Assembly (NCBI GenBank): GCA_003451645.1
Contig: DMER01000167.1
Location: forward strand, 9,084-27,273
Direction of reading: 5' to 3'
Source: Alphaproteobacteria bacterium
GTDB lineage: Bacteria; Pseudomonadota; Alphaproteobacteria; Micropepsales; Micropepsaceae
Length of the DNA: 18,190 bases
How positions within the stretch are numbered: the stretch's first letter is position 1; each line of letters opens with the position of its first letter. The translations under genes were made by a program, and so were the position numbers. Shown here in pieces: positions 1 through 17,575 of this stretch. The notes under the pieces were generated by a model. It ran no database searches, was not told the origin of the DNA, and saw nothing but the letters and a program-made list of their open reading frames with translations.

Positions 1-488
1 ATGAGGACGCTAATGTGTCCATCGGCGGGAGCGTGAAAATCGACGACGCGTTGGTTCCTGAGATCGACATCAGCTATTTCTTCGACGAGGATTGGTCGAT
101 CGAACTAATCGCCGCAACCAGCCCGCACAATGTCCGCTCGACCCTTGGCATCAACCTCGGTGACGCCTGGGTGCTGCCCCCAACCCTTACAGTCAAGTAT
201 CATCTGCCGGTGGATGGGCCTGTGCGCCCTTACATTGGCGCAGGGATCAACTACACCACCTTTTGGAACATTGATGAGCAACCTGGCCTGTCGATGGACT
301 ATTCCGATAGCTGGGGTTGGGCCTTGCAGGCGGGCATCGAAATCGACCTTGGAAATAACTGGTCCTTAAACATTGACGTTAAGAAGATAGACATCGACAC
401 AGATGTCAAAATCAATGGCGGCGCCATCACGGCCGATGTTGAGATTGACCCGCTGGTGGTGGGCATTGGGATTGGCTATCGCTTCTAG
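1..488 (+). CDS. ompW: OmpW family outer-membrane beta-barrel protein, 5' truncated by window edge
   Basis: OmpW proteins are small eight-stranded outer-membrane barrels, thought to let small hydrophobic compounds through. The frame is open from the first bases (first full codon at position 3), so the start and signal peptide lie outside the window. A GTG at 15 is in frame, but the residues before it (EDAN) continue the family pattern, so it is not the start. Visible family features are the alternating strands around VPEIDISYFFDEDWSIELIAA, the stretch LPPTLTVKYHLP, PYIGAGINYT, and the aromatic C-terminus GIGYRF, whose final Phe is typical of barrels inserted by the BAM machinery. Stop TAG is at 486-488. 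The next gene begins about 60 bases later on the same strand; no terminator is evident between them. Nothing connects it functionally to the sugar genes. Family assignment is firm; substrate is unknown. Confidence 0.9.
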   Translation, partial: EDANVSIGGSVKIDDALVPEIDISYFFDEDWSIELIAATSPHNVRSTLGINLGDAWVLPPTLTVKYHLPVDGPVRPYIGAGINYTTFWNIDEQPGLSMDYSDSWGWALQAGIEIDLGNNWSLNIDVKKIDIDTDVKINGGAITADVEIDPLVVGIGIGYRF

Positions 489-548: not shown

Positions 549-1775
549 ATGCGCGAGCGCACGCTTTTGATCGTGTCTGCAGGCGTCGAGGCGGTCCATG
601 GGATCCGCCGGGCGAAAGAGCTCGGGCTTCGCGTCATAGTGAGCGATCGCGATACATCGGCACCTGGATTTGCGTACGCGGATGATGGTTTTGAGGCCTC
701 CACCTACGATCCACAGGCAACCGCCGATGCGGCGGAAGACTATGCAAGACGGTGCGGCCCAATTTCTGGCGTGATCACCATCGGTGCAGATGTTCCGTTG
801 ACGGTTGCAACCGTAGCAGCCCGGCTAGGCCTTCCAGGGATTTCGCTTGAGGCCGCACGATTGGCGCAAGACAAGCTTGCGATGAAGGCTAGGCTTGCTC
901 AACAAGGCATCCCTGTTCCCGCTTTTGCGGCCATTCCGAACCTTGACGCACTAAAGCGCCACACGGATACCCGCGGGCTGGGTTATGTCTTGAAACCCGC
1001 CGACAGCCGTGGCGGTCGAGGGGTACAACGACTTTCTGCGGTCAAGGACCTTGCTGAGGCTTGGGAGGTAGCGGCCGGTCACTCGCCTTCTGGCCGCGTC
1101 ATGGTTGAAGAATTCTTGGATGGCCCACAAATATCGACCGAATCCATTCTGATCGATGGCCTGGGCGCAACGCCCGGATTCTCGGACCGCAACTATCCCT
1201 ATCTCGATCGATACACGCCCTATTTCATTGAGGATGGCGGCGATCTGCCGAGCAGCTTGCCGGTGCCCGTCCAAGCCGATGTGAAAGCCACTGTGGAAGC
1301 AGCTGGCCGCGCCTTGGGTGTTAAAACAGGCAACATCAAGGGCGACATGGTCGTGCACAATGGCAAGCCTTACGTTATCGAAATCGCAGCGCGAGCCTCC
1401 GGTGGTTACTTCTGCACCCGGGAGATACCTCTGAACACGGGAGTCGATTTCATTGGCGCCGTGATCCGGATCGCCCTTGGCGAGCGGGTATCGCTGTCCG
1501 AGCTTTCGCCCCGTTTCGAGCGCCCAGTGGTACAGCGCTATTTGTTCCCAACGCCCGGACGTGTCGTTTCTGTCAGAGGCTCTGATGCTGCTTCGCAGAT
1601 GCCTGGTATTGAGGAATGCCTTGTAACAGTGAAGCCAGGCAGCATTATCCGTCCGCCAACGGACAGTAACTGCACCGCGGCGATGGTCTTGGCAACGGGA
1701 AGCTCGCGTGCCGAGGCTCAAATGCGGGCGGCACAGGCATTGAACCTGATCGCGGTCGAAACGGTGCCTCTATGA
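549..1775 (+). CDS. ATP-grasp domain ligase (carbamoyl-phosphate-synthase-like), first gene of sugar-modification operon
   Basis: ATP-grasp enzymes join a carboxylate to an amine or similar nucleophile through an acyl-phosphate. The protein has an N-terminal Rossmann-like pre-ATP-grasp part (TLLIVSAGVEAVHGI, then VIVSDRD...APGFAYAD, residues 5-45), an ATP-binding loop GYVLKPADSRGGRG near 145-158, the MVEEFL strand near 185-190, and the Mg-binding stretch YVIEIAARASGG near 275-286. It is 408 aa from the ATG at 549. An in-frame ATG at 534 would add five residues; neither has a clear Shine-Dalgarno. I chose 549 because the nucleotide-fold strand starts right after it. The stop overlaps the next start as ATGA at 1772-1775, so it is likely translationally coupled to the deacetylase. 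From context I infer that it adds an acyl or amino-acid group to an amino sugar. The substrate cannot be read from the sequence. Family is certain; role is inference. Confidence 0.88.
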   Translation: MRERTLLIVSAGVEAVHGIRRAKELGLRVIVSDRDTSAPGFAYADDGFEASTYDPQATADAAEDYARRCGPISGVITIGADVPLTVATVAARLGLPGISLEAARLAQDKLAMKARLAQQGIPVPAFAAIPNLDALKRHTDTRGLGYVLKPADSRGGRGVQRLSAVKDLAEAWEVAAGHSPSGRVMVEEFLDGPQISTESILIDGLGATPGFSDRNYPYLDRYTPYFIEDGGDLPSSLPVPVQADVKATVEAAGRALGVKTGNIKGDMVVHNGKPYVIEIAARASGGYFCTREIPLNTGVDFIGAVIRIALGERVSLSELSPRFERPVVQRYLFPTPGRVVSVRGSDAASQMPGIEECLVTVKPGSIIRPPTDSNCTAAMVLATGSSRAEAQMRAAQALNLIAVETVPL

Positions 1776-2440
1776 GCATCCTGGTCGTTGCTGCCCATCC
1801 TGACGATGAAGTCTTGGGCGCAGGGTGCGCAATCGCGGCCCATGCGGACCGAGGCGAGGCCGTGCACATTCTGATTATGGCTGCAGGCCTGGACTCCCGT
1901 GGCGAGGCCGCGACGACTTCAGCGCATGACCGGCTAAAGGAACAGGCGCGTGCGGCAGCACTGGTGCTTGGCGCACGGTCGGTTGCCTTCCTCGATTTTC
2001 CCGACAATGCGATGGACACTGTCGGGTTGCTGCACGTAGTAAAGCCGATTGAGGCGATGATTGAGCAGACCTCTCCTCATACGGTCTATACGCACAGCGC
2101 CAGCGATCTCAACATTGATCATAAGATTACCGCTCGCGCGGTCATGACGGCGGCCCGGCCTCTGCCCGGCGCCAGCGTCAAGCGAATTCTGGCCATTGAG
2201 GTTCCTTCCGCTACGGGATGGGATGCACACGCAGCACCCTTTCAGCCCAACACGTTCCTGGATGCAAGCAATACTCTTGCCCGGAAACTCGCCGCCATGG
2301 AGTGCTACCCAGATGAGTTGCGCTCGTTTCCTCATGCCCGATCTCTGCGCGGCATTAAGGCCAGGGCGGTCAGTTGGGGAGCGCAGGTGGGCATGCCGGC
2401 GGCCGAGCCCTATCAATTGCTGCGAAACTTGCAGCCATGA
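1772..2440 (+). CDS. PIG-L/LmbE family sugar N-deacetylase
   Basis: PIG-L/LmbE enzymes are zinc-dependent and remove the acetyl group from N-acetylated sugars such as GlcNAc-PI or bacillithiol and mycothiol precursors. The 222-aa protein has the signature AHPDDE at residues 8-13, which supplies zinc ligands and the catalytic Asp, and the second zinc region YTHSASDLNIDH at 106-117 with His108, Asp112 and His117. Length is normal. The start ATG overlaps the previous stop, and its own stop overlaps the formyltransferase start in the same ATGA manner at 2437-2440. Deacetylase followed directly by N-formyltransferase suggests that an acetamido group is exchanged for a formamido group, or that a freed amine is used by the upstream ATP-grasp ligase. 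The sugar substrate is not shown by the sequence. Family assignment is firm. Confidence 0.92.
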   Translation: MSILVVAAHPDDEVLGAGCAIAAHADRGEAVHILIMAAGLDSRGEAATTSAHDRLKEQARAAALVLGARSVAFLDFPDNAMDTVGLLHVVKPIEAMIEQTSPHTVYTHSASDLNIDHKITARAVMTAARPLPGASVKRILAIEVPSATGWDAHAAPFQPNTFLDASNTLARKLAAMECYPDELRSFPHARSLRGIKARAVSWGAQVGMPAAEPYQLLRNLQP

Positions 2441-3381
2441 GCGGCCTAACCAATCTGCCCATTCTGTTTGTCGGTGCACGAATAGTTGGCAGATTGTGCT
2501 TGGAGGCTCTCCTTTCGGAAGGCGCGCGCATTGCCGGTCTCTTGGTGCTCGATGAGTCCAAGGCCGGTCAAACAGTTGCCCACGCTGATTTCGCTGACCT
2601 TATCGAGCAGCACCATGTCCCGGCTCGTCCCTTCCGTACACTGAAGGGCCTCGAAGGCCATTCACATGCGGCTTGGGCCAGAGAGCTACGCCCAAGGCTT
2701 GGTATCGTTGTCGGGGTTTCGGAACTGCTGGGACCAGAGATATTGTCCCTCCCGGAACTAGGTTTCATAGGCATGCACCCTACATTCTTGCCGGAAGGGC
2801 GTGGGCGAGCCCCCATACCCTGGGCCATTATTCTGGGGCTGAAGCAAACGGGCGTCTCCCTCTTTTATGCCGCAGAAGGCGCTGACACAGGCGACATCCT
2901 GCTGCAAGAACGCGCACCGATTTTCGAGGACGACACTGCATCCACTCTTGGTGCCCGCACGGACAACGTCGCGGCTCGATTGCTTGTGGACGCGGTTGAG
3001 AAAATTGCCACTGGGACCGCACCGCGAATACCTCAAGATCCTGCCATAGCGACCCACTGGCCGCGCCGCCGTCCTGAGGACGGTGTCATCGACTGGAATC
3101 GTCCGTCAGCGGATGTTGTAAGATGGATCAGGGCACTGACCCATCCCTATCCAGGGGCGTTCACGCATATCGGCGGCCAGAAACTATTCATCTGGGAGGC
3201 TGTTGCCACCACGGCACCCAGGGGCAACGTGCCCGGCGAAATCCTCGCGCGCGACGATGACCGGCTCACCATCGCAACATGCGACGGAGCGGTTGCCGCA
3301 ACTTCATTTCAGTGGGCGGATCAAAGCAACGGAATGACCTCGGAAGGAAATGTCATTGCCCGAATAAGGTCTGCAAGCTGA
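2437..3381 (+). CDS. Sugar N-formyltransferase (methionyl-tRNA formyltransferase-like, N10-formyl-THF dependent)
   Basis: This family moves a formyl group from N10-formyltetrahydrofolate to an amine. The 314-aa protein has an N-terminal formyl-transferase domain (about 5-190) with MHPTFLPEGRGRAPIPW at 113-129 and the loop EGADTGDI with Asp150, then the C-terminal domain marked by EDGVIDW and HPYPGAF. His114 and Asp150 match the His and Asp of the classical Asn-His-Asp triad, but the Asn position is Gly112. Genes for tRNA formylation normally sit beside def or rsmB; this one is locked between a sugar deacetylase and a GH57-like gene, so an amino sugar is the more likely acceptor, for example the PseC product. 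The start at 2437 is chosen for the ATGA overlap; an upstream in-frame ATG at 2374 lies inside the deacetylase and adds 21 non-family residues. The stop shares one base with the next start (TGATG). Confidence 0.9.
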   Translation: MSGLTNLPILFVGARIVGRLCLEALLSEGARIAGLLVLDESKAGQTVAHADFADLIEQHHVPARPFRTLKGLEGHSHAAWARELRPRLGIVVGVSELLGPEILSLPELGFIGMHPTFLPEGRGRAPIPWAIILGLKQTGVSLFYAAEGADTGDILLQERAPIFEDDTASTLGARTDNVAARLLVDAVEKIATGTAPRIPQDPAIATHWPRRRPEDGVIDWNRPSADVVRWIRALTHPYPGAFTHIGGQKLFIWEAVATTAPRGNVPGEILARDDDRLTIATCDGAVAATSFQWADQSNGMTSEGNVIARIRSAS

Positions 3382-5312
3382 TGAGCCTCAATCTCTTCGC
3401 CTTCTTTCACCTCAATATGATGTTCTCCTCTATTCCGGAAGAACGCAGACCTGAGGTCGTCGAGAAAGCCTATTGGCCATTACTGGATTTGCCTGAGGCC
3501 GTCGGATTTCCCATTGGCATAGAAGCGACCGGGCTCACTCTGGAGATCATCAACGCAATCGACCCGGGATGGATCGCGCGATTGCGCGAACGCATCATCT
3601 CCGGGCAAATCGAATTCATTGGATCGGGTTATGCTCAGATTATTGGTCCGCTTTGCCCTGCGATCGTGAATGAACAAAATTTGCGCCTCGGCAATCAGGT
3701 CTATGAGGCAATACTCGGCGCCCGCCCCAAACTTGCATTGATCAACGAGCAAGCCTATTCAGCCGGGTTGATCCCGCTATATCGCGCGGCAGGCTACCAA
3801 GCCATTTGCATGGACTGGGATAATCTCGCGCCCCATCATCCAGAATGGCCTGCGGAAACCCGGTTCTCGCCGCAACAAGCAATCGCTCCGGACGGCACCA
3901 CCATTGGGTTGCTCTGGACACAGACTTTTCTCTTTCAGAGGCTGCAACGGCTGGCCCATGATGATATCAGCCTCGATGAGTATTTGGAGACGATCTCCTC
4001 ATTTCGCACCCGTTCACCAAGAACCCTCTGCCTCTACAGCAACGACGCCGAGATATTCGGTGTACGGCCTAACCGGATGGCGACGGAGGAGCGTGTAGCA
4101 AACGGCGAGTGGCAGCGCATTCAATCGGCGTGGCAAGCGCTCGCCAGACAACCGGATGTCCGCTTTGTCAGCCCCAGCGAAGCCTTTGGGGACTACGCCA
4201 ATACGACCGCGCCGCTGCATCTTGAAACCTCCGCCTACCCCATTCCTGTCAAAAAGCAGCCAAAGTACAATGTCCTGCGATGGGCTCTGGCTGGCCGTGA
4301 TAACCTCGCCATCAATGCAGCTTGCTCCCGGCTAACAGACGCTCTGGAAGAAAAGCGCGTTACTACAGACATGGAATGGGCGCAGCTATGTCGTCTCTGG
4401 TCCTCCGATTTCCGCACCCACATCACAGAGCAGCGCTGGCACGCCTACCTGAACGAAGTCGCCGAACTGGAAGCCAAGCATGGTACTTCTCCGCCTCCAC
4501 CATGGCCACCCTCTAAGTCCGGCGTCCAACGCTCAGACGGCCGTTGGATCACGGTCGAAACTCCTGCGCTCAAGGCAACACTGAACCGGCGCAGGGGCCT
4601 TGCGATCCAGTCCTTGGCAAGGCACGGCGAAACTGCGCCGCCGATGATCGTCAGCCATTTGCATGGCCGGTTTCAGGGTATCGCTCTCCAATATGATTGG
4701 TACACGGCTAATCTGGTATTCGAAGCGTTGGATGGTCCGAAAGTCAGCGACTTGGATTGGGCGCACACAAGTATCGACCACTTGCCAGACGGTATCATCC
4801 GCGTAACGGGCACCATGCAAAGCCGTAAGGGGCCAATCACCAAAGCGATTACATTCGATGCGATAAAACCGCGTGTCACGGTCGACATCTGGGCCGATTG
4901 GCCTGAACCAGGGCGCGGCTCCTTGCGTGCCGCCCACATTTGCGTGGAACCAACGGCATTTGAATGGAAGGACCTGACGGCACGGTGCCACAACGGAGGA
5001 CATGATCAGGAAAGCTTCGCGTTGGGTCCTGGACCTATTGATCATGCTGCCGCTGTTTCATTCCAAGTGTCGGCAACTACGGGGTTGGGGTGCACGGATG
5101 GTATCCTGGACATCAGTGATGGGCGTCGAGGTTTCCGGATTGAAATTGACCGCGCTGTTGCCCCACTGATACCTATGATCGAACATCGCCCAGAAGTGGA
5201 AGGTCCCTTTTGCCGCATTCTGTTGTCTGCGCAGGAGACAGACGACACCCTCAAACCACACTCAGACAGGCGCCCGCCCTTGCATTTCCGGTACGCGATC
5301 CTTCTGCACTGA
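3381..5312 (+). CDS. Glycoside hydrolase family 57-like protein
   Basis: The 643-aa protein starts at ATG 3381, which shares one base with the preceding stop (TGATG). An open frame continues upstream to 3279 inside the formyltransferase gene, but those 34 residues are out-of-frame shadow. GH57-like marks are the N-terminal FHLNMMF with His10 (family HQP motif, degenerate), GQIEFIGSGYAQIIGPLCP near 75-93 (family pattern G-Q-x-E-x-x-G-x-G-Y), NEQAYSAGL with Glu123 at the nucleophile position, and YSNDAEIFG with Asp222 and Glu224 at the acid position. The C-terminal half (about 330-643) looks beta-rich, like the extra domain of mannosidase or amylase relatives. GH57 enzymes act on alpha-glucans and related glycans, which is surprising in a nucleotide-sugar operon. 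It could hydrolyse or rearrange a sugar intermediate, or process a glycan. Fold assignment is good; activity is unknown. Confidence 0.78.
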   Translation: MSLNLFAFFHLNMMFSSIPEERRPEVVEKAYWPLLDLPEAVGFPIGIEATGLTLEIINAIDPGWIARLRERIISGQIEFIGSGYAQIIGPLCPAIVNEQNLRLGNQVYEAILGARPKLALINEQAYSAGLIPLYRAAGYQAICMDWDNLAPHHPEWPAETRFSPQQAIAPDGTTIGLLWTQTFLFQRLQRLAHDDISLDEYLETISSFRTRSPRTLCLYSNDAEIFGVRPNRMATEERVANGEWQRIQSAWQALARQPDVRFVSPSEAFGDYANTTAPLHLETSAYPIPVKKQPKYNVLRWALAGRDNLAINAACSRLTDALEEKRVTTDMEWAQLCRLWSSDFRTHITEQRWHAYLNEVAELEAKHGTSPPPPWPPSKSGVQRSDGRWITVETPALKATLNRRRGLAIQSLARHGETAPPMIVSHLHGRFQGIALQYDWYTANLVFEALDGPKVSDLDWAHTSIDHLPDGIIRVTGTMQSRKGPITKAITFDAIKPRVTVDIWADWPEPGRGSLRAAHICVEPTAFEWKDLTARCHNGGHDQESFALGPGPIDHAAAVSFQVSATTGLGCTDGILDISDGRRGFRIEIDRAVAPLIPMIEHRPEVEGPFCRILLSAQETDDTLKPHSDRRPPLHFRYAILLH

Positions 5313-5388
5313 ACATCAAACACCTTGACCTCACGCTTAATTAACGGGATTCGGCAATGCTTTCTGAACCATAACAAAGGGTGACCCG

Positions 5389-6495
5389 ATGGCCCAGGTT
5401 CAGAACTCCGTTTCCTTCGCGTCCGATGATGATGAGGCGATGTTGCCCGCCCCTCTCGGTCCCGCGATCCGCCAACGCGATTTCTTGGAGCCTCAAATCG
5501 ACCTGAACGGCCAGACCGTGCTCGTCACCGGCGGGACAGGGTCGTTCGGTTATCAATTTGTCCGTATGGTGATCAATCGCTTCACACCGCACCGCCTGAT
5601 CATCTTTTCCCGCGATGAACTAAAACAGTTTGAGATGGCGGCGGCCTTCCCGCCAGAAAAATATCCCTTCATGAGATTCTTCATTGGCGATGTCCGCAAT
5701 CGCGATCGCCTCGACTTGGCACTGCGCGATGTCGACTATGTCGTGCACGCTGCTGCCATGAAGCAAGTTCCGATTGCCGAGTACAATCCGTTCGAGTGCA
5801 TCGCCACAAACGTGATCGGCGCCGAAAACATTGTTCAAAGCTGCTTGCGCCGGGGCGTAAAGCGCGTCATCGCTCTCTCCACGGACAAAGCCGCGAACCC
5901 GGTCAATCTCTACGGCGCCTCAAAACTGGCGTCCGACAAGATCTTCGTCGCGGCCAACAATCTTGCGGGCAAAAATGGCTGCCGCTTTTCGGTCGTTCGC
6001 TATGGAAACGTGGTTGGGTCACGCGGCAGCGTTCTGCCCCACTTCCAGAAACTGATCCGTGATGGCGCCTCCGCACTGCCGATCACAGATGAGCGCATGA
6101 CGCGATTTTGGATCACCCTCAATCAGGGTGTGAACTTTGTCTTGTCCTCTATGGCCATGATGCGCGGGGGCGAAATCTTTGTACCCAAAATTCCCAGCAT
6201 GCGTGTGACAGACATTGCGCGTACCCTGGCGCCGCATATCCGCCAGTCCGTCATAGGCATCAGGCCAGGCGAGAAGCTGCATGAGGTTATGATCCCGTCC
6301 GATGATGCACGCCAGACTCTGGAACTACGCGACCGCTATTTGATCCTGCCCGCGTTTCTCGACAACATCCGCCAGGATTACGAGCGCGATGGCGCGGTGC
6401 CCGTTCACGAAGACTTCTGTTACGCAAGCCACAGCAACCCGGAGCGGCTGGACGCGCGCGCGTTGCAAAACATGCTTGAAGAGTCGTTCTCATGA
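5389..6495 (+). CDS. pseB: PseB/FlmA-type UDP-N-acetylglucosamine 4,6-dehydratase (inverting)
   Basis: PseB performs the first step of pseudaminic acid synthesis: UDP-GlcNAc is dehydrated and epimerised to UDP-2-acetamido-2,6-dideoxy-beta-L-arabino-hexos-4-ulose. The 368-aa short-chain dehydrogenase-type protein has the NAD(P)-binding TGGTGSFG at 47-54, AAAMKQVP at 121-128, STDKAANP at 164-171 (active-site Asp166 and Lys167) and the YGASK motif with Tyr175 and Lys179. The combination of MKQVP, STDKA and YGASKL is characteristic of PseB rather than RmlB. About 38 residues precede the normal family start, including an acidic DDDE run. AAAGGG at 5376-5381, seven bases before ATG 5389, supports this start. 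A 76-base gap separates it from the GH57-like gene, the only real gap in the operon. Its stop overlaps the pseC start (ATGA at 6492-6495). Confidence 0.95.
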   Translation: MAQVQNSVSFASDDDEAMLPAPLGPAIRQRDFLEPQIDLNGQTVLVTGGTGSFGYQFVRMVINRFTPHRLIIFSRDELKQFEMAAAFPPEKYPFMRFFIGDVRNRDRLDLALRDVDYVVHAAAMKQVPIAEYNPFECIATNVIGAENIVQSCLRRGVKRVIALSTDKAANPVNLYGASKLASDKIFVAANNLAGKNGCRFSVVRYGNVVGSRGSVLPHFQKLIRDGASALPITDERMTRFWITLNQGVNFVLSSMAMMRGGEIFVPKIPSMRVTDIARTLAPHIRQSVIGIRPGEKLHEVMIPSDDARQTLELRDRYLILPAFLDNIRQDYERDGAVPVHEDFCYASHSNPERLDARALQNMLEESFS

Positions 6496-7700
6496 CTGTT
6501 CGCGCGGCCACACCGATGCTTTCTTATGGCCGCCAAAGTATCGATCGGCAAGACATTGACGCCGTAGTCACTGCTCTGCAGGCGGATCTTCTGACCACGG
6601 GACATTCAGTCCCCGCATTCGAGGGCGCGCTCTGCCAGGCGACAGGCGCAGCTCATACAGTCGCGGTTTGCAATGGAACCGCCGCTCTGCATCTGGCCGT
6701 GCGCGCGGCTGGTCTGGGGCCAGGTACCGCCACAATCGTGCCAGCGATCACGTTCGTCGCAACCGCCAATGCTGTGCGGCTCAATGGCGGCGAGGTCATC
6801 TTTGCCGATGTTGACGCTGAAACCGGGCTGATGACGCCGGACACGCTTTTGCGGGCCCTTCGCACACCCAACACACTACCCATTCGTGCCGTTATGCCGG
6901 TGCACTATGCCGGACCAATGGCCGGCATGGCGGCAATCGCCGGCATAGCGGGCGACAATGGCCTCACCATTATCGAAGATGCGTGCCACGCGATTGGTTC
7001 GCGAACGGAAGGAGGCGCAATCGCCGGCAATTGCAAGCACTCAAACATGACTTGCTTCAGCTTTCACCCTGTTAAAACCATCACCACCGGAGAAGGCGGG
7101 GCCATCACGACAAATGATCCGGACCTGGCGCATCTTCTGCGTCGGGACCGCAGTCACGGCCTCACGCGCAATGCCCTCGATTTTCAGAATTCCGATCATG
7201 CCTTTGATGAAAATGGCGCACCGAACCCGTGGTACTACGAGCTCCACGATGTAGGACCGAACTATCGTCTAACGGACATTCAGGCAGCGCTTGGCATATC
7301 GCAGCTGTCGCGGCTTCAGCAATTCGTGCGGAAGCGGGCTGACCTGAAAGACGCCTATGACGCGCTCCTCACAAGCTTTGCCCCAATCCTCCGTGTGCCG
7401 TCCGCCGACCCAGACCAGCACCCAGCTTGGCACCTCTATCCCGTCGCGATCGACTTCGCTCGCGCCAAGGTGTCTCGTGCCAGTGTGGTGCAAAAACTCG
7501 CGGCCATGGGTATCGGGACACAGGTGCACTATATCCCGGTCCACTTACAGCCCTACTACCGCAATCGCTATGGCCTCGCCAAATTGCCGGGTGCGGAAGA
7601 ATTCTATGCGAGGACACTGAGCTTGCCGCTGCACACGACGATGACAACGGATGATGTGGAGCGAGTTGTAATCTGTCTCGCGAAGGTTCTCAGATTATAG
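6492..7700 (+). CDS. pseC: PseC/FlmB-type UDP-4-keto-sugar aminotransferase (PLP dependent)
   Basis: PseC transfers an amino group from glutamate to the 4-keto product of PseB, giving UDP-4-amino-4,6-dideoxy-beta-L-AltNAc. The 402-aa DegT/DnrJ/EryC1/StrS-type enzyme has the phosphate-binding CNGTAALHLA around 60-69, EDACHAIGS at 162-170 (Asp that pairs with the PLP ring nitrogen) and SFHPVKTITTGEGGA with Schiff-base Lys195. It starts ATGA-coupled to pseB, the standard pse/flm pairing. It ends 17 bases before the convergent flaG-like gene, with no visible terminator. Its product carries a free amine at C4, a natural acceptor for the operon's formyltransferase or for a PseH acetyltransferase encoded elsewhere. 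A homologous aminotransferase for another 4-keto sugar cannot be fully ruled out, but the pair with PseB makes PseC the best call. Confidence 0.93.
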   Translation: MTVRAATPMLSYGRQSIDRQDIDAVVTALQADLLTTGHSVPAFEGALCQATGAAHTVAVCNGTAALHLAVRAAGLGPGTATIVPAITFVATANAVRLNGGEVIFADVDAETGLMTPDTLLRALRTPNTLPIRAVMPVHYAGPMAGMAAIAGIAGDNGLTIIEDACHAIGSRTEGGAIAGNCKHSNMTCFSFHPVKTITTGEGGAITTNDPDLAHLLRRDRSHGLTRNALDFQNSDHAFDENGAPNPWYYELHDVGPNYRLTDIQAALGISQLSRLQQFVRKRADLKDAYDALLTSFAPILRVPSADPDQHPAWHLYPVAIDFARAKVSRASVVQKLAAMGIGTQVHYIPVHLQPYYRNRYGLAKLPGAEEFYARTLSLPLHTTMTTDDVERVVICLAKVLRL

Positions 7701-7717
7701 AACGAAGACCCACTTCT

Positions 7718-8092
7718 TCACACGGAACGGTCAACTTGATGCGGCGGCTCCGGAGCGGGCGCGCTCTCAACCTGCCGGAAATACTGTAACACACGCAGGA
7801 CTTCTTCCCGGGGCCATTGCCACACAACCTCGCCCTCGGGCTGCTCAACTGATTTGTAGACGAACTTTCCGCTATCGGAATCAAGAGCCACTGTCAGCCT
7901 AGTTCCATCCACACGGATTTGCTGGCTCGGCTGATGGTCCCGCGTCAAGTGCGAAATCTTGGCGGCACCTTCGACCGCCTTTACGCTCTGCGGCTCAGAA
8001 CCGCCTTGGGTGCCCTCTGGTGGCTGCGCGCGATGCGGAACCGCGACGGCCGGAACACCTGCATTGCTCTGGATGTTTCCTGAAGCGCTCAT
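7718..8092 (-). CDS. FlaG-like flagellar protein
   Basis: This small 124-aa protein lies downstream of the two flagellin genes on the same strand. FlaG proteins have a variable, low-complexity N-terminus and a short conserved C-terminal part where a strand carrying an acidic residue is followed by a pattern like D-x-x-T-G-E-V-x-R-Q-I-P-x-E-E-x-L. Here residues 67-105 read TVALDSDSGKFVYKSVEQ, then GEVVWQWPREEVLRVLQYF, which follows that pattern loosely (VVWQWPREEVL in place of VIRQIPPEE). FlaG influences filament length in several bacteria; its mechanism is not settled. The N-terminal half is rich in Pro, Gln and Ser and probably disordered. No sigma-54 site was seen directly upstream, so it probably depends on read-through from flagellin A through the hairpin at 8138-8161. 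The match is to a weakly conserved family, so confidence is moderate. Confidence 0.7.
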   Translation of the reverse strand: MSASGNIQSNAGVPAVAVPHRAQPPEGTQGGSEPQSVKAVEGAAKISHLTRDHQPSQQIRVDGTRLTVALDSDSGKFVYKSVEQPEGEVVWQWPREEVLRVLQYFRQVESAPAPEPPHQVDRSV

Positions 8093-8175: not shown

Positions 8176-9000
8176 TTAGCGGAACAGACCTAACACGGCT
8201 GACGGCGCCTGATTGGCGATCGACAGTGCTTGGATGCCCAGCTGCTGCTTCGTCTGCAGCGACTGCAACTTCGCGCTCTCTTTGGCAAGATCGGCATCGA
8301 CAAGATTGCCAACACCCTTTTCGAACTCGTCGGACAGCTTGCCCACGAAGGTCTTGTGAATGTCGAGCTTCTTGGACCCCGTACCCAATTTGGCAAGTGC
8401 CAGATTGAGGCGGTTGATCGACGTTTCCAAGGTGGCAATCATCGCGCTGGCCTTGTCTTGCGTCGAGATCGTGTTGGTTGAACGAACGGTCACGTTCGCG
8501 CCGCCAAGCGACAAGACCTGTGCAGAGACGGTGATCGCGCCGCCGGCCGTCAGATTGGCCAACGCCTCGATCTTGGTCGTCGACCCGTCGACCAGGTTCA
8601 CGCCGTCAAACGTGGCATTGTCCACGATCTTGGTGATCTGATCGCGCAGAGCGACGAAGTCGGCATTGTACGATTCACGCGCATTGGAATCGATCGACGT
8701 GTCCGACGCGGCCAAGGCCTTTTCCTTCATCTCATTGAGAAGATCGGAAACGGCTTGACCCGCGGCAACCGCTGTATCAACCGAGCTGATCGCGCGGTTC
8801 AAGCTGTCGGTGACCGCCTTATAGCCAGCAACATCAGAGCGCATGCCTTGCGCAATGGCGAACACAGCGCCATTGTCACGCGGGCCTGAGATCTTCTGCC
8901 CAGTGTTGATGGCATTCTGCGTTTGCGAGAGCATCTTGTTGGTGGCGTTCAGGTTCTGCAGAGCAACCATCGCGCCATAGTTCGTATTCACGGATTGCAT
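8176..9000 (-). CDS. Flagellin A (274 aa, Caulobacter-type short flagellin)
   Basis: This is a structural subunit of the flagellar filament, exported by the flagellar type III system. The protein starts MQSVNTNYGAMVALQNLN and ends QALSIANQAPSAVLGLFR, the conserved D0/D1 helices at both ends. At 274 aa it lacks the large D2/D3 domains of enteric flagellins, as in Caulobacter. Start 9000 is chosen because GGAGGT lies five bases upstream; the frame stays open to 9066, but those residues (RPKAKRRN...) are not flagellin. The middle part contains many Ser and Thr residues (TSIDSNARES, STNTISTQDKAS), possible O-glycosylation sites for FlmG. It has its own sigma-54-type promoter at 9066-9081 and a 55-base leader with stem-loops. 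It closely resembles flagellin B: both share TNTISTQDKASAMIAT, LALAKLGTGSKKL and GNLVDADLAKESAKLQSLQT, so the pair is a tandem duplication. Confidence 0.97.
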   Translation of the reverse strand: MQSVNTNYGAMVALQNLNATNKMLSQTQNAINTGQKISGPRDNGAVFAIAQGMRSDVAGYKAVTDSLNRAISSVDTAVAAGQAVSDLLNEMKEKALAASDTSIDSNARESYNADFVALRDQITKIVDNATFDGVNLVDGSTTKIEALANLTAGGAITVSAQVLSLGGANVTVRSTNTISTQDKASAMIATLETSINRLNLALAKLGTGSKKLDIHKTFVGKLSDEFEKGVGNLVDADLAKESAKLQSLQTKQQLGIQALSIANQAPSAVLGLFR

Positions 9001-9026
9001 TTTGACCTCCATTCTGGTCCGGTTTC

Positions 9027-9054
9027 GGCGTTTTGCCTTGGGGCGTTTTGCCCC
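9027..9054 (-). promoter_or_regulatory. Flagellin A mRNA leader: tandem GGCAAAACGCC stem-loop motif
   Basis: Read on the minus strand, the predicted leader begins near 9055 and carries GGCAAAACGCC twice with a 15-base period (9042-9052 and 9027-9037). The first copy extends to GGGGC/GCCCC with loop AAAAC and would sit at the very 5' end of the transcript; the second has only three pairs. In Caulobacter, FlbT acts on the 5' leader of flagellin mRNA, so this is a candidate FlbT/FlaF target. Structure is seen; function is inferred. Confidence 0.5.
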
Positions 9055-9065
9055 GCCCCCTGCCA

Positions 9066-9081
9066 AGCAATCCTTGCGCCA
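9066..9081 (-). promoter_or_regulatory. Sigma-54 promoter of flagellin A
   Basis: The minus strand reads TGGCGCAAGGATTGCT: GG and GC separated by exactly ten bases, with TGGC at -24 and TTGC at -12. The consensus is TGGCACN5TTGC. Predicted transcription start is about 9055, giving a leader of about 55 bases. Caulobacter flagellin genes transcribed late in assembly use sigma-54, so this fits. Confidence 0.8.
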
Positions 9082-9322: not shown

Positions 9323-10147
9323 TTACCGGAACAACGACAAGATCACCTGCGGTGCCTGATTGGCGATGGACAGCGCCTGAACGCCCAATTGCTGCTTGGT
9401 CTGCAGCGATTGCAGCTTGGCACTCTCCTTGGCCAGATCCGCATCCACCAAATTGCCAACACCCTTGGTCAGTTCGTCTTGCAACTTCCCGACAAAGGAT
9501 TTGTGGATATTGAGCTTCTTGGACCCGGTGCCGAGCTTGGCGAGAGCCAAGTTCAGGGCATTCAGAGTGGTTTCAATGGTCGCGATCATCGCGCTGGCTT
9601 TGTCCTGCGTCGAGATCGTGTTTGTGGCCCTGATGGTGACGATCGTCGACCCAAGAGAGAAAACCTGCGCCGCAACGGTCACAAAGGCGTTGCCGTCCGC
9701 ATTGGCGAGAGCTTCAACTTTGGTGGTCGAGCCATCAATCAGGTTCAAACCATCGAATGTCGCATTGTCCACGATCTTCTGGATTTGATCGCGCATTGCG
9801 ACGAAGTCCGCATTATAGGCTTCCCGCGAATTCTGATCGATTGAAGTGTCAGAGGCGGCGATCGCCTTCTCCTTCATCTCCGTGATCAGGTCTGAGAGCG
9901 CCTGCCCTGCCGCCACCGCAGTGTCCACCGCGCTCACCGCGCGATTGAGACTGTTCGTGACCGCATTGAGGGCCAACACGTCCTTGCGCATACCTTGTGC
10001 CACGGCGTGGATCGCGCCGTTGTCCTTCGGACCGGAGACCCTAAGACCCGTATTGATGGCGTTTTGCGTCATCGACAGGTCTTGATTGGTCTTGTTCAGG
10101 TTTTGCAACGCGATCATCGCGCCGTAGTTCGTATTTACACTGAGCAT
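9323..10147 (-). CDS. Flagellin B (274 aa, Caulobacter-type short flagellin)
   Basis: This second filament subunit starts MLSVNTNYGAMIALQNLN and ends QALSIANQAPQVILSLFR, with complete D0/D1 terminal helices and no D2/D3 insert. It has the same length as flagellin A and differs mainly in the middle (ALANADGNAFVTVAAQVFSLG against the corresponding ALANLTAGGAITVSAQVLSLG) and at the extreme C-terminus. A purine-rich GGAAGGAAGGA lies about nine bases upstream of the ATG at 10147. It is preceded by a near-perfect sigma-54 promoter (10234-10248) and a 75-base leader with two stem-loops, and followed by the strong terminator at 9255-9286. The better promoter and terminator suggest that this is the more strongly expressed subunit. 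In Caulobacter, different flagellins occupy different filament zones; such a division here is only an inference. Ser/Thr-rich central residues are possible glycan sites. Confidence 0.97.
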   Translation of the reverse strand: MLSVNTNYGAMIALQNLNKTNQDLSMTQNAINTGLRVSGPKDNGAIHAVAQGMRKDVLALNAVTNSLNRAVSAVDTAVAAGQALSDLITEMKEKAIAASDTSIDQNSREAYNADFVAMRDQIQKIVDNATFDGLNLIDGSTTKVEALANADGNAFVTVAAQVFSLGSTIVTIRATNTISTQDKASAMIATIETTLNALNLALAKLGTGSKKLNIHKSFVGKLQDELTKGVGNLVDADLAKESAKLQSLQTKQQLGVQALSIANQAPQVILSLFR

Positions 10148-10345: not shown

Positions 10346-10699
10346 TTAGCTCCGCCCCGCCAGGCCTGCCATGATGTCTTTGTTGACATCGATGAGCGGC
10401 TCCAAGGACTCGCCCTCCTGAACCACGCTGCTCGAGTAGCGCGAGACCCAAATGGCCAGGGAGATGATCCCGGCCCGGACAGAGTCCGGGAGAGAATTGC
10501 CTTCACTCGCACAATCGGATGCGAGAGCGCTCCAAACCCGCCGGTTCCAGTCCAGCACATCGATCAGCCTCACCGCGTCATAACGGCCGGCCTTCTCCAC
10601 TTCCATCAAGGCACCAGTCACTTGCGCGAACAGCCGGTACTCGGTCGTCCGCAAGGACTCGTTAGCATGCTGCGCTTTTTGATACGCCGTCACAGACAT
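10346..10699 (-). CDS. flaF: FlaF, flagellin biosynthesis regulator
   Basis: FlaF is an alphaproteobacterial protein needed for flagellin production. In Caulobacter it works against FlbT and is proposed to act as a flagellin chaperone or translation activator. The 117-aa protein starts MSVTAYQKAQHANESLRTTEYRLFAQVTGAL and carries the family stretch LDWNRRVWSALASDCASEGNSLPDSVRAGIISLAIWVSRYSS (about residues 50-90), ending VNKDIMAGLAGR. Length is normal. The start lies inside flbT: the two genes overlap by 38 bases in different frames, implying coupled translation. The stop at 10346 is close to the ftr-like half site of flagellin B. Identification is firm. Confidence 0.95.
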   Translation of the reverse strand: MSVTAYQKAQHANESLRTTEYRLFAQVTGALMEVEKAGRYDAVRLIDVLDWNRRVWSALASDCASEGNSLPDSVRAGIISLAIWVSRYSSSVVQEGESLEPLIDVNKDIMAGLAGRS

Positions 10700-13097: not shown

Positions 13098-14051
13098 CTA
13101 TTGCTGCTGATCCGCATGAACGGGTTGCGCCATACCTGGCCTGGGTGACTGGCCCATCGGCCTCACAACGCGCAAGAACTCCTCCCGCCGTTTAGGGGCC
13201 TGTGCAGGGGCAACGTGGACGGCAGCCGACAGCTCGCTATTGGCCGCGCCCTTGAAGACACCACGCGTAGGCGGCACATCGTGATGGTCCCGGCCGATGG
13301 CAACGCGAATGTGGCGTTCATTGACCGCCACATTGTTGGTGGGATCAAAGCCTGTCCAGCCATGCCCAGGAATATGCGCCTCTATCCAGGCATGCGCGGC
13401 CTCTGGGTCCGAACGGTCGCCAGTATCGCGCCGCGTATAGATGTAGCCAGAGACAAAGCGCGCTGGAATGCCCCACTGCCGTGCGGCCGTGAGCATGATG
13501 TGCGCGAGGTCCTGGTTGTTGCCTTGCCTGCGATCAAGCGTGGCGTCGATGTCAGCATCGATATCGCTGGGACCAGGCACATAGGCAAAACTGTCATAGA
13601 CCGCGCGGCACAGCCTGCGCAGTGCCGTCATTGGATCGCCGGACCGGCTTAGATTGCGGTCTCGCATGAATTCCTCAAAGGCAGCTGACGGCCGTGTCAA
13701 AGCTGTCGGCCGCAGGAGGTCAAAGTGCTCAGCTTGGAATTCAGGCGACGCCAGAGCCTGCCAAACGTCGGGCTCGACCCATTCAGGCGCCGGAATGAGG
13801 GGGCCCACTTCCACTGTTGAATCGGCCTCAATGACCAATTCCGTATGTGTCCCTGGTACAGAGAAATGATAGACAGCATTGCCGAAATGATCCGTATACG
13901 CCTGTAAATTGGCGCGCGGGCGCGTGCTCAATTGAAACGTTGTCAGCCTCTGCGCGCCCTCGCTCTTGGGCTGCATAACGACCTGCATAACTGACTCGCG
14001 GATTGGCGCGTCATAGCGAAAGCGTGTCACATGTTGGATCGAGTAATGCAT
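13098..14051 (-). CDS. Transglutaminase-like protein with Cys-to-Asn change at the catalytic position
   Basis: The 317-aa protein belongs to the bacterial transglutaminase/protease-like superfamily: an N-terminal beta domain (MHYSIQHVTRFRYDAPIRES, residues 1-90) followed by a papain-like core. In family members the nucleophile lies in G-x-C-Q-D-x-A-H; here residues 177-184 read GNNQDLAH, so Asn179 replaces Cys. His220 in AAHAWIEAHIPGHGW and Asp236 in GFDPTNN are kept. I checked the codons (GGC AAC AAC CAG GAC) on the minus strand, so this is not a reading error of mine. The protein may be a binding or structural partner instead of an enzyme, or belong to a subfamily with a different mechanism. 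It is last in the trio with Alpha-E and circularly permuted ATP-grasp genes; five bases separate it from Alpha-E. The C-terminal 45 residues are Pro/Gln-rich and unlike the core. Confidence 0.9.
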   Translation of the reverse strand: MHYSIQHVTRFRYDAPIRESVMQVVMQPKSEGAQRLTTFQLSTRPRANLQAYTDHFGNAVYHFSVPGTHTELVIEADSTVEVGPLIPAPEWVEPDVWQALASPEFQAEHFDLLRPTALTRPSAAFEEFMRDRNLSRSGDPMTALRRLCRAVYDSFAYVPGPSDIDADIDATLDRRQGNNQDLAHIMLTAARQWGIPARFVSGYIYTRRDTGDRSDPEAAHAWIEAHIPGHGWTGFDPTNNVAVNERHIRVAIGRDHHDVPPTRGVFKGAANSELSAAVHVAPAQAPKRREEFLRVVRPMGQSPRPGMAQPVHADQQQ

Positions 14052-14056
14052 GCGCG

Positions 14057-15019
14057 TTAAGCCCTCAAAAGATCTTCGACGCCATAGGCGATGAACGCAT
14101 CGAACACGCTCTCATGGATTTCAACACAGCGCTCCTGTACGTCGTGCAAGAAATGGTCGATGTCGCCACCCAGCAATTCGTCCACTTGTCCATAATCAAG
14201 GCTTGCCTTGAGGCGGCCGGCAAGCCGCTCGGCCTTGCGCTGCGGACCCCCGGCAGCACCCGGACCAATTGCGAGCAGCTCATCGTTCAATCGGTCCACA
14301 GAGAAACGCAGCGAATGGGGAAACTCCGCATCGAGAAGAAGAAATTCGGCGATCCGGTTCGGATCGACATCGGCGGTGTAAACCTTGCAATAGGCCTCGA
14401 AGCCTGTGCATTGCTTCAGAAGCCCGATCCAGTCGGCATAGCGCGGCGCGCGCAATTTGTAGGGTACATCGTCCGGCAGATCCCCAAAATAGACATCCAG
14501 AAGCCTGCTCACGCACTGCGCACGCTCCAAATAGCGGCCGATCTGGATGAAATGCCAGCCCTCGCCATGGCGCATGGTCGAATCCGTCAGTCCAGAGAAC
14601 ATCATCAGGTCGTCGATCACGCCATTCAGGAACGGCACCGGCGCCCGGCGCCATTCACGCTCAGCCTCCGGATCCGAGGCGCGCAGATAGAGGCGGTTAA
14701 GGCGGCCCCACATCTCTGTCGAGATCTGTTCGCGCATCTGCCGCGCATTATCGCGGGCATAACGGATGCACATCAACACGCTATTATTGGACTGGCGGTC
14801 AAAAGTGAGCCTGTGCGCGATGTCGGAGGGCGCGGCTATACCCCAACTTGCCATCGGGTTGGTGAGCGTGGCCAGCGCCCGCACCCAGCCCTCGGCCGTG
14901 TCTTCGGCCGCTTCTTCGAGCATTGCCTCCAATTTGACGTCAAGTACACGCGCGCCATGCTCTGCCCGTTCCAAGTAACGCGCCATCCAGTAGAGATTAT
15001 CCGCAACTCGCGACAACAT
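14057..15019 (-). CDS. Alpha-E domain protein (DUF403)
   Basis: Alpha-E proteins are all-helical and almost always encoded beside a circularly permuted ATP-grasp gene; comparative genomics predicts that they take part in an amide-ligase pathway making a peptide-like modification, but no reaction is established. The 320-aa protein starts MLSRVADNLYWMARYLERAEHGARVLDV, the family signature, and has the internal repeat-like segment GEGWHFIQIGRYLERAQCVSRLLDVYFG near 175-200. Start 15019 is preferred over the open frame to 15091 because GGAG lies about seven bases upstream of it and the first 24 residues of the longer form overlap the previous gene and are not family-like. Four bases separate it from the ATP-grasp stop. 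No membrane or signal sequence is apparent, so it is likely cytoplasmic. Confidence 0.93.
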   Translation of the reverse strand: MLSRVADNLYWMARYLERAEHGARVLDVKLEAMLEEAAEDTAEGWVRALATLTNPMASWGIAAPSDIAHRLTFDRQSNNSVLMCIRYARDNARQMREQISTEMWGRLNRLYLRASDPEAEREWRRAPVPFLNGVIDDLMMFSGLTDSTMRHGEGWHFIQIGRYLERAQCVSRLLDVYFGDLPDDVPYKLRAPRYADWIGLLKQCTGFEAYCKVYTADVDPNRIAEFLLLDAEFPHSLRFSVDRLNDELLAIGPGAAGGPQRKAERLAGRLKASLDYGQVDELLGGDIDHFLHDVQERCVEIHESVFDAFIAYGVEDLLRA

Positions 15020-15023
15020 CGGT

Positions 15024-16535: not shown

Positions 16536-16729
16536 GGCGTTCTCCCCCAACTCGAAGGCCTTCTGAGGCCAGAATCCGTCCCTACAGGTGATTTGGCGCA
16601 GTGGAGGCAAGTGCCCCCCTGGCGTCAAGGCCTTATCGCAGGCCCTGCCCTTGCCAATCCCCCTCTGGCCCGCATAGCCTCAGGCGCAATTGAGAATTTG
16701 TCACCGGGAAAAAGAGGACCAGGACGCCG

Positions 16730-17575
16730 ATGCGCTTTGAAGGGACCAAGGATTATGTCGCCACGGATGACTTACGCGTGGCCGTCAACGCCGCCATCAC
16801 GCTCGAACGCCCCCTCTTGGTGAAGGGGGAACCAGGCACGGGCAAGACCGTCCTGGCCTTTGAGGTCGCCAAAGCACTAGGCGCGCCGATCATCCAATGG
16901 CACATCAAATCGACAACTAAAGCGATGCAAGGCCTATACGAATACGATGCTGTGGCCCGTTTGCGCGATAGTCAGCTGGGGGACGAACGCGTCAAGGACA
17001 TCCACAACTACATCAAAAAGGGCAAATTATGGGAGGCATTCACCCATGGTCAGCGCCCGGTCCTGCTCATCGACGAGGTTGATAAGGCCGACATCGAATT
17101 CCCGAACGACCTGCTCCTAGAATTGGACCGCATGGAATTCTTTGTCTACGAGACCGGCGAGACCATCAAAGCGCATCAGCGCCCAATCGTCATGATCACG
17201 TCCAACAATGAGAAGGAATTACCGGACGCGTTCCTGCGCCGCTGCTTCTTCCATTACATCAAGTTTCCGGACCAAGAGGTCATGAAACAGATTATTGCCG
17301 TCCATTTCCCGCGCGTTCAGGACCGTTTGGTGGGTGAAGCGCTCAAGATCTTCTACCAAATCCGCGAAGTGCCCGGCCTGAAGAAGAAGCCTTCGACCTC
17401 TGAGCTTCTCGATTGGCTCAAATTGTTGATGGCGGACGACATCAGCCCTGAAACCTTGCGCGAAAAAGACCCGAACAAGCTCATCCCGCCGCTTCACGGT
17501 GCGTTGCTCAAGAATGAGCAGGATGTGCATTTGTTTGAGCGCTTGGCCTTCCTGGCGCGCCGCGAACGCAACTAG
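16730..17575 (+). CDS. MoxR-family AAA+ ATPase
   Basis: MoxR AAA+ proteins act as ATP-driven chaperones, usually with a von Willebrand A partner, in maturation of enzyme complexes. The 281-aa protein has Walker A GEPGTGKT at 33-40, Walker B VLLIDEVDKAD at 111-121, sensor 1 MITSNNEKELPDAF near 155-168 and arginine-finger candidates Arg170/Arg171 in FLRRCFFHYIKFP. The STTKAMQGLYEYDAVARLRD stretch (61-80) is typical of the CoxD/MoxR branch found beside CoxE-type VWA genes. The partner would normally be the next gene; the 615 bases after the stop show none, so it would lie beyond the window or be unlinked. AGAGGA about ten bases upstream supports the ATG at 16730. The gene is divergent from the ATP-grasp trio, with no evidence for a functional link. 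Confidence 0.92.
   Translation: MRFEGTKDYVATDDLRVAVNAAITLERPLLVKGEPGTGKTVLAFEVAKALGAPIIQWHIKSTTKAMQGLYEYDAVARLRDSQLGDERVKDIHNYIKKGKLWEAFTHGQRPVLLIDEVDKADIEFPNDLLLELDRMEFFVYETGETIKAHQRPIVMITSNNEKELPDAFLRRCFFHYIKFPDQEVMKQIIAVHFPRVQDRLVGEALKIFYQIREVPGLKKKPSTSELLDWLKLLMADDISPETLREKDPNKLIPPLHGALLKNEQDVHLFERLAFLARRERN

What the first reader, a model, noticed from the sequence alone, without database searches (positions are those of the whole stretch)
549..7700. Six-gene operon adds ATP-grasp, deacetylase, formyltransferase and GH57-like steps to pseBC in a flagellin locus
Four coupled genes (ATGA, ATGA, TGATG junctions) precede pseB-pseC, and the block ends 17 bases from the flagellin cluster. Known pseudaminic routes use PseH acetyltransferase and PseG hydrolase after PseC. 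Here a deacetylase and a formyltransferase could replace acetyl by formyl (PseC's C4 amine becomes N7 of the nonulosonic acid; the C2 acetamido becomes N5), and the ATP-grasp enzyme could amide-link another group. The GH57-like protein has no place in known routes. This may be a flagellin glycan not yet described.
Basis: partly seen in the sequence, partly recalled or inferred. Interest (0 to 1): 0.75.

Follow-up and report, generated by a model that had tools for sequence, protein, structure and literature searches.

The report
Extended flagellin sugar pathway gene locus
These six genes are the downstream half of a larger gene set that probably builds an unusual sialic-acid-like sugar for coating the bacterial flagellum; one of them, a starch-enzyme-like protein, recurs in such gene sets in many bacteria and its job is unknown.

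Summary
The six genes are real and correctly placed, but they are half of a larger locus. Upstream on the same contig are NeuB, a cytidylyltransferase/PseG-like fusion, methyltransferases, an alcohol dehydrogenase, a split transketolase and an SDR; downstream are flagellins, FlaF and an FlmG-like TPR protein. Much of this order recurs in relatives.

The core is ATP-grasp plus the GH57-like protein. In the 80 best loci found with the latter, ATP-grasp is seen in 69; of 42 with full flanks, 40 hold a nonulosonate gene. PIG-L and formyltransferase are an optional pair, in 4 of 80 loci, each time between those two genes; the tree needs at least four changes. In the 120 listed formyltransferase homologs ArnA's Asn is Gly (119) or Ala (1).

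The closest studied system is Shewanella sfmABCDE, needed for a flagellin modification that likely is a nonulosonate with an extra 236-264 Da group. I read this locus as a related pathway that amide-links an acyl group and swaps N-acetyl for N-formyl. The GH57-like enzyme is a conserved, unexplained component. The chemistry is inferred.

The parts
549..1775 (+). ATP-grasp ligase with LAL_C2 domain; candidate carboxylate-amine ligase acting on a nonulosonate or its precursor
   Evidence: Pfam LAL_C2 78.6 bits and ATP-grasp families; nearest solved relatives include an L-amino acid ligase, 3vot; a match in all 12 relatives' loci and 69 of 80 loci
1772..2440 (+). PIG-L family N-deacetylase; optional cassette, first gene
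   Evidence: PF02585 88 bits; AHPDDE and H117 invariant in 5 of 5; with FT in 2 of 12 relatives and 4 of 80 loci, two of these four being the same genomes as the two relatives
2437..3381 (+). Two-domain formyltransferase-family protein (G112-M113-H114 ... D150); optional cassette, second gene
   Evidence: PF00551, PF02911; ArnA 163.7 bits in PDB with Asn aligned to G112; Gly in 119 and Ala in 1 of the 120 homologs listed, of 2238 found
3381..5312 (+). GH57-like protein (GH57 barrel plus C-terminal mutarotase/GH38-like beta domain); E123 and D222 align with E123 and D214 of TLGT
   Evidence: PF03065 55.3 bits; alignment to 1k1w; model pLDDT 90.8, pTM 0.92; fold matches
5389..6495 (+). PseB, UDP-GlcNAc 4,6-dehydratase (inverting)
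   Evidence: TIGR03589 505.4 bits over cut-off 407.75
6492..7700 (+). PseC, UDP-4-amino-4,6-dideoxy-AltNAc transaminase
   Evidence: TIGR03588 459.2 bits over cut-off 423.5
7718..8092 (-). FlaG-like small protein, convergent with pseC
   Evidence: weak FlaG match, 16.5 bits, far below its cut-off of 154; a relative near the flagellins in 7 of the 12 relatives' loci
8176..9066 (-). flagellin, first gene (ORF as listed; the true start may be further in)
   Evidence: ORF translation; relatives have one to three flagellin hits in this place
9323..10147 (-). flagellin, second gene
   Evidence: ORF; used as query, hits in 10 of 12 relatives' loci
10346..10699 (-). FlaF
   Evidence: PF07309 108.9 bits
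11220..13088 (+). TPR protein with C-terminal domain, probable FlmG-like flagellin glycosyltransferase (start may be 11310)
   Evidence: TPR Pfam matches; domain plan and place as FlmG in PMC7591256 (passages); no glycosyltransferase family matched

Best explanation
The block is the downstream half of a locus that makes a modified pseudaminic-type nonulosonic acid for flagellin. PseB and PseC make UDP-4-amino-4,6-dideoxy-AltNAc (family-level evidence). With no clear PseH found, the C4 amine is acylated by the ATP-grasp ligase with a carboxylic acid built by the split transketolase and SDR, tailored by methyltransferases and in some lineages FeADH (inferred, about 0.4). In this lineage the PIG-L enzyme removes the C2 N-acetyl and the formyltransferase-family enzyme puts on a formyl group, giving a 5-N-formyl sugar as in haloarchaeal 5-N-formyl-legionaminic acid (inferred, about 0.4). 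The PseG-like half of the fused protein removes UDP, NeuB condenses with PEP, the cytidylyltransferase half makes the CMP sugar, and the FlmG-like TPR protein loads flagellin (by family). The GH57-like enzyme is probably a cytoplasmic retaining glycosidase or transglycosylase acting on the same substituent or its precursor (about 0.35); its substrate is unknown.
For: PseB and PseC pass curated cut-offs. NeuB and a PseG-like/cytidylyltransferase fusion are on the same contig. Gene order recurs in relatives and in a named, annotated Solidesulfovibrio plasmid. GH57-like genes occur in 10 of 385 alphaproteobacterial genomes; all 10 have NeuB against 169 of 385 overall (Fisher p 2.3e-4, genomes not independent), and in all 10 the gene lies near at least one of NeuB, SpsFG, PseB or PseC. 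Among 42 full-flank loci, 34 hold a TPP enzyme, an SDR and ATP-grasp together; 29 have transketolase, 5 an acetolactate-synthase-like enzyme, none both. Shewanella sfmABCDE has the same enzyme kinds (NeuB, TPP enzyme, 3-oxoacyl-ACP reductase, methyltransferase, ATP-grasp), deletions shift flagellin migration, and the authors assign a 274 Da nonulosonate with a single acetyl plus a 236/250/264 Da moiety. PseH passes the cut-off in 0 of 12 GH57-bearing genomes. PIG-L and FT relatives lie at neuB in Halorussus and near NeuB in L125.
Against: No product, substrate or glycan mass is known for this organism. In Shewanella the ATP-grasp deletion (sfmE) was milder than the others: cells kept a filament and swam, and the flagellin shift was slightly smaller, which suggests an outer decoration rather than an obligatory step; on checking I lowered the C4-ligation odds from 0.45 to 0.4 and the whole from 0.6 to 0.57 for this. 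Absence of PseH is weak: the model passes its cut-off in only 1 of 14 control genomes, which one is not told; FlmH of Caulobacter is only 26% identical to PseH; 11 of the 12 genomes have sub-cut-off matches. PseI and PseG cut-offs are not met (147.7 against 340.25; 93.4 against 153.55), and the NeuB protein scores slightly higher with the N-acetylneuraminate synthase model (159.5), so pseudaminic stereochemistry is not proven. The formyltransferase lacks the usual Asn. An outer-membrane-like gene lies between the SDR and ATP-grasp genes. ATP-grasp was not found in 4 of 42 full-flank loci (L039, L084, L109, L111) nor in the stretches of G139 and G388 among the 10 class genomes. The GH57-like barrel also matches CE4-type deacetylases and ArnD, at lower Z.
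Confidence: 0.57

Rival explanations
1. Protecting-group scheme: the formyltransferase caps the C4 amine made by PseC, the sugar is hydrolysed and condensed, then a deacylase (PIG-L, or even the GH57-like barrel) removes the formyl group and the ATP-grasp enzyme acylates the freed amine, as ArnA/ArnD do for L-Ara4N (ArnA/ArnD logic recalled). Not exclusive of the general frame above.
Against: Most loci with ATP-grasp lack FT and PIG-L, so ligation does not need protection in general. In haloarchaea a stable N-formyl product is known.
Confidence: 0.2
2. The ATP-grasp, GH57-like, TPP and SDR genes build a second sugar or acid that is joined to an ordinary nonulosonate after CMP activation or on flagellin, not on a UDP intermediate. 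Overlaps with the best explanation except for the substrate.
For: In Shewanella the 236 Da part is a separate moiety on a mono-acetylated nonulosonate, and the ATP-grasp mutant is milder than the others. GH57 enzymes act on glycosides. Odds raised from 0.25 to 0.28 on checking, for the milder mutant.
Against: None of the eight window proteins scanned matched a glycosyltransferase family; window proteins beyond 13088 were not scanned. The Shewanella authors infer full assembly before transfer.
Confidence: 0.28
3. Ordinary Pse5Ac7Ac pathway with an unrecognised acetyltransferase elsewhere; the extra genes serve an envelope polysaccharide.
For: Weak PseH-model matches exist in the genome. On the Solidesulfovibrio plasmid the series has no flagellin in the stretch.
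Against: Position between NeuB/SpsFG and the flagellin cluster recurs in relatives. O-antigen polymerisation or ligation genes were not looked for by profile.
Confidence: 0.12

Closest known systems
Shewanella oneidensis sfmABCDE flagellin modification operon (PMC3765264; abstract, passages and Discussion section read)
   Same: NeuB, TPP enzyme, SDR reductase, methyltransferase and ATP-grasp; PseB/PseC homologs in the genome; flagellin target; no clear PseH
   Different: sfmB is a single-chain ilvB-like TPP enzyme, here a split transketolase; no GH57-like, PIG-L or FT in the five-gene operon; the paper finds no clear PseG, PseI or PseF either, while a PseG-like domain and NeuB are here; candidate transferases there are MAF proteins. 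Sfm sequences were not compared here.
Caulobacter crescentus FlmA/B/H/D/NeuB/C and FlmG (PMC7591256; passages read)
   Same: PseB, PseC, PseG and PseI functions; TPR-glycosyltransferase acting on flagellins
   Different: Acetylation assigned to FlmH; no ATP-grasp, GH57-like, PIG-L/FT or TPP enzyme in the pathway table seen
Halorubrum sp. PV6 5-N-formyl-legionaminic acid pathway (PMC6137143; abstract and passages read)
   Same: N-formyl nonulosonate with a candidate formyltransferase in the locus; another haloarchaeon, Halorussus, has PIG-L and FT at neuB
   Different: Legionaminic type; N-glycan of the S-layer; the words deacetylase, PIG-L and LmbE do not occur in its main text; the formyltransferase gene was shown transcribed, its activity is not reported in the passages read
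PseJ formyltransferase (PDB 6ci2, 6ci4)
   Same: Formyltransferase fold, pseudaminic context by its name
   Different: Scores 42 bits against the FT profile while ArnA scores 163.7; FT here is two-domain
GH57 4-alpha-glucanotransferase TLGT (PDB 1k1w, 1k1x)
   Same: Barrel, aligned Glu/Asp pair, C-terminal beta domain
   Different: 12-14% identity; gene context is nonulosonate synthesis, not starch or glycogen

Membership tests
CMP-pseudaminic acid pathway | PseB and PseC over curated cut-offs | tested here: met
   505.4 and 459.2 bits
CMP-pseudaminic acid pathway | PseH N-acetyltransferase | tested here: inconclusive
   No match over cut-off in own genome (26.4 bits best) nor in any of 12 genomes; the model passes in only 1 of 14 controls, not named; own genome 83% complete
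CMP-pseudaminic acid pathway | PseG, PseI over NCBIfam cut-offs | tested here: not met
   93.4 of 153.55 and 147.7 of 340.25 bits; NeuB_NnaB scores 159.5 of 399.65; the NeuB Pfam cut-off is met
CMP-pseudaminic acid pathway | Product is Pse | not testable with these tools
   Needs NMR or MS
Shewanella Sfm-type flagellin modification | NeuB, TPP enzyme, SDR, methyltransferase, ATP-grasp in one locus | tested here: met
   by enzyme kind, not by comparison with Sfm sequences
Shewanella Sfm-type flagellin modification | Nonulosonate with 236-264 Da substituent on flagellin | not testable with these tools
   No mass data
GH57 | Family profile and catalytic Glu/Asp | tested here: met
   PF03065 55.3 bits over 21.2; E123 and D222 invariant in 45 of 45, aligned to TLGT E123/D214 (their role recalled)
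GH57 | Glycoside hydrolase or transglycosylase activity | not testable with these tools
   No substrate known
ArnA/Fmt-type formyltransferases | Asn-x-His ... Asp catalytic residues (role recalled) | tested here: not met
   Gly (119) or Ala (1) at the Asn column in the 120 listed of 2238 homologs; His in all 120; Asp D150 invariant in 5 of 5, a strict Asp pattern matched 78 of 120 and the other 42 were not all examined
PseJ | Closest similarity to PseJ | tested here: not met
   42 bits against 163.7 for ArnA
PIG-L deacetylases | AHPDDE and downstream His | tested here: met
   Invariant in 5 of 5
FlmG flagellin glycosyltransferase | TPR N-terminus with GT-B C-terminus, acting on flagellins | tested here: inconclusive
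   TPR part found; no glycosyltransferase family matched; position beside flagellins fits

The most novel reading that the evidence does not exclude
A GH57-fold enzyme, so far tied to starch-type glucans, is a general cytoplasmic step of nonulosonate biosynthesis (ten phylum labels in the tree, most of them from MAGs), working with a TPP enzyme, an SDR and an ATP-grasp ligase to make and attach an undescribed acyl or glycosyl-acyl side chain; a formyltransferase family lacking the catalytic Asn and a PIG-L deacetylase form a plug-in that changes the other amide.
Probability: 0.4. Interest if true: 0.8.

Novelty: new variant of a known kind. Interest (0 to 1): 0.6.

Why it matters
Flagellin nonulosonates affect motility, phage binding and immune recognition (recalled), and their side chains are hard to predict from genes. 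Here a recurring enzyme set (TPP enzyme, SDR, ATP-grasp, GH57-like) marks loci likely to make a decorated nonulosonate. It may give the unexplained 236-264 Da group on Shewanella flagellin a wider genomic family, and it gives the GH57 fold a candidate biosynthetic role.

Tried and rejected
A four-gene core (reader): rejected, because PIG-L/FT is absent from 10 of the 12 relatives' loci fetched and not seen in 76 of 80 loci (several of these are short contigs).

PseG replaced by the GH57-like enzyme: rejected for this locus, as a PseG-like domain is present although below cut-off.

FT as a PseJ orthologue: rejected on scores.

GH57-like gene in viruses: 156 stretches matched a pattern in viral contigs but none encoded a relative; in plasmids one record only.

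Wider search for the FT clade at E <= 1e-60: 2 of 385 class genomes (own and G398) and 1 of 398 phylum genomes (own). The cassette is rare in sampled genomes. Flagellins of the genomes of L092 and L106 were found, but not within the fetched flanks; L106 has FlaG in its flank.

Literature, all ten searches: (8 papers with 4 of 6 terms; GH57 + pseudaminic acid, 0; 18; TPP + pseudaminic acid + flagellin, 2; 5 of 6 PIG-L/formyltransferase/legionaminic terms, 0; ArnA residues, 0; PseJ terms, 7; flagellin glycosylation + transketolase + neuB, 0; ATP-grasp + flagellin glycosylation, 2), 77 (glycoside hydrolase family 57 + flagellin, 1, unrelated by its title and abstract start). Passages only were read of PMC7591256, PMC3426422, PMC5109656, PMC6137143 and PMC5207246. 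Subscription papers are missing from that library.

A first motif count failed through a wrong pattern and was redone. A control by random stretches was not run. The 80 loci are the best of 129 confirmed, found by two short peptide patterns, so they lean to close kin. The GH57 tree has 44 rows: 43 of the 80 loci plus the window; of 44 loci picked by hand L060 was dropped for one stop, and 36 were not picked. Counts by tblastn miss diverged or unassembled genes, so they are lower bounds.
Full report
1. What is there. The window holds the six genes at the stated places. Pfam gives ATP-grasp with an L-amino acid ligase C-terminal domain, PIG-L, formyltransferase N and C domains, GH57, and a dehydratase and aminotransferase; NCBIfam names the last two PseB and PseC over curated cut-offs. 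The junctions are ATGA, ATGA, TGATG and, for pseB-pseC, ATGA; 76 bases separate the GH57-like gene from pseB, and the next gene is convergent, 17 bases on.

2. It is half of a locus. The window is bases 9084-27273 of an 89,115-base contig of an 83% complete genome. Upstream (L020) are, on the minus strand, a cytidylyltransferase/PseG-like fusion (open at the contig end) and NeuB; then on the plus strand a methyltransferase, an FkbM methyltransferase, an iron-type alcohol dehydrogenase, a split transketolase (two genes) and an SDR reductase, named. An outer-membrane-like gene (OmpW, name recalled), partly read as N, lies between the SDR and the ATP-grasp gene. Downstream are a FlaG-like protein (weak match), two flagellins, FlaF, a further small gene (FlbT, recalled) and a TPR protein of the FlmG plan. 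PseI and PseG cut-offs are not reached, and the NeuB protein scores slightly better with the N-acetylneuraminate synthase model than with PseI, so 'pseudaminic' is the likely class by PseB/PseC, not a proven product.

3. Conservation. Of 41 genomes (own and 40 relatives) 15 have the GH57-like gene. I fetched the loci of 12 of the 14 relatives, plus own. All 12 have an ATP-grasp match: in 9 it is next to GH57 on its upstream side, in 2 PIG-L and FT stand between, and in one of another family (L029) it lies about 6 kb away. PseB and PseC are in 8 of the 12 stretches, after GH57 in 7 and before it in L029; flagellin is in 10. The complete genome of strain SO-S41 is among the relatives (G011, same length as AP024629).

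4. Across bacteria. A scan of one genome per species gave 129 relatives, the best 80 kept. In these 80 tblastn saw ATP-grasp 69, SpsFG 51, PseC 51, MT 48, TKC 48, NeuB 47, flagellin 45, TKN 45, PseB 44, SDR 38, TPR 36, and FT and PIG-L in the same 4; two of these 4 (L038, L096) are the two cassette relatives. ATP-grasp is the same-strand upstream neighbour within 1.5 kb in 59 of 80, a count that leaves out all four cassette loci by its rule. In 42 loci with at least 8 kb on both sides, 40 have a nonulosonate gene, 38 ATP-grasp, 34 a TPP enzyme, 24 flagellin; transketolase (29) and acetolactate-synthase-like (5) do not occur together, nor do they in the 80. The two without a nonulosonate hit at that threshold are L104 (a weak SpsFG hit) and L111. 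Organism labels in the tree span Pseudomonadota, Bacillota, Gemmatimonadota, Actinomycetota, Chloroflexota, Acidobacteriota, Thermodesulfobacteriota, Myxococcota, Verrucomicrobiota and Planctomycetota; the named isolates seen are Pseudomonadota and, on a plasmid, Solidesulfovibrio, so the other phyla rest on MAGs. That plasmid has the same series ending ATP-grasp, 'glycoside hydrolase', pseB, pseC, with no flagellin annotated in the stretch. In an even sample of 385 alphaproteobacterial genomes GH57-like occurs in 10, all with NeuB, against 169 of 385 overall (Fisher p 2.3e-4; three of the ten share a family and two others a genus). All ten have the gene near at least one nonulosonate gene, NeuB in nine, but an ATP-grasp hit in only eight of the stretches (G139 and G388 lack it).

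5. The cassette. In a tree of 44 GH57-like proteins the five cassette carriers need at least four changes, forced by supported branches, so the pair was gained or lost repeatedly at one spot. Related pairs occur at nonulosonate synthase genes without GH57: L125 (NeuB, then FT 36% and PIG-L 27%) and Halorussus (neuC, PIG-L, neuB, FT; 41% and 37% to the window's proteins). Halorubrum PV6 carries 5-N-formyl-legionaminic acid with a candidate formyltransferase. Two further FT relatives, in Palleronia and Ruegeria, lie in other polysaccharide loci near an ATP-grasp gene.

6. An oddity in FT. The alignment to ArnA and Fmt puts G112 opposite their Asn, while His and Asp are kept. Of the 120 best homologs listed (2238 found) 119 have Gly and one Ala. 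The four FT relatives checked from other loci also have Gly; a second, shorter Halorussus formyltransferase has Asn. So formyl transfer by this family is likely but not assured.

8. Mechanism. PseH passes no cut-off in 12 of 12 genomes, a weak negative since the model passes in only 1 of 14 controls. Shewanella sfmABCDE offers the best guide: the same five enzyme kinds, loss of flagellin modification in mutants, and a mono-acetylated nonulosonate carrying an extra 236/250/264 Da group. Its ATP-grasp mutant is milder, with a filament and a slightly smaller shift, which fits a ligase that adds the outer group as well as it fits a PseH substitute; the odds were lowered for this. I infer that the ATP-grasp enzyme attaches an acid made by the TPP enzyme and SDR, that methyltransferases tailor it, and that PIG-L and FT exchange the other amide. 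What GH57 does in this is a guess.

9. Verdict. It is a new variant of flagellin nonulosonate pathways with one truly unexplained conserved enzyme.

Noticed in passing
window 2437-3381; P0121-P0240: Formyltransferase family with Gly in place of the catalytic Asn in 119 of the 120 homologs listed; may use another acyl group or a changed mechanism.
   Followed up: partly
window 13098-17575: Run of genes that look like transglutaminase, alpha-E domain, circularly permuted ATP-grasp and a MoxR ATPase (names recalled from the translations) next to the flagellin cluster; by eye the first two are also there in L096.
   Followed up: no
window 1-488; L020 8739-9571: OmpW-like (name recalled) outer membrane gene interrupts the glycan genes; part of it just before the window reads N.
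   Followed up: no
L134 (Ruegeria sp. B32 plasmid): Large inverted duplication on both sides of a formyltransferase gene: the same protein accessions appear in mirror order.
   Followed up: no
L087, L108, L051: An acetolactate-synthase-like TPP enzyme stands in place of the split transketolase; the two types were not seen together in the 80 loci.
   Followed up: yes
L132 (Halorussus caseinilyticus): Archaeal nonulosonate locus with PIG-L and two formyltransferases, one Gly-type and one Asn-type.
   Followed up: partly
L030, L031, L027: G011 and G019 gave split matches to the GH57-like query, perhaps from an insertion; G003 has one in-frame stop.
   Followed up: no
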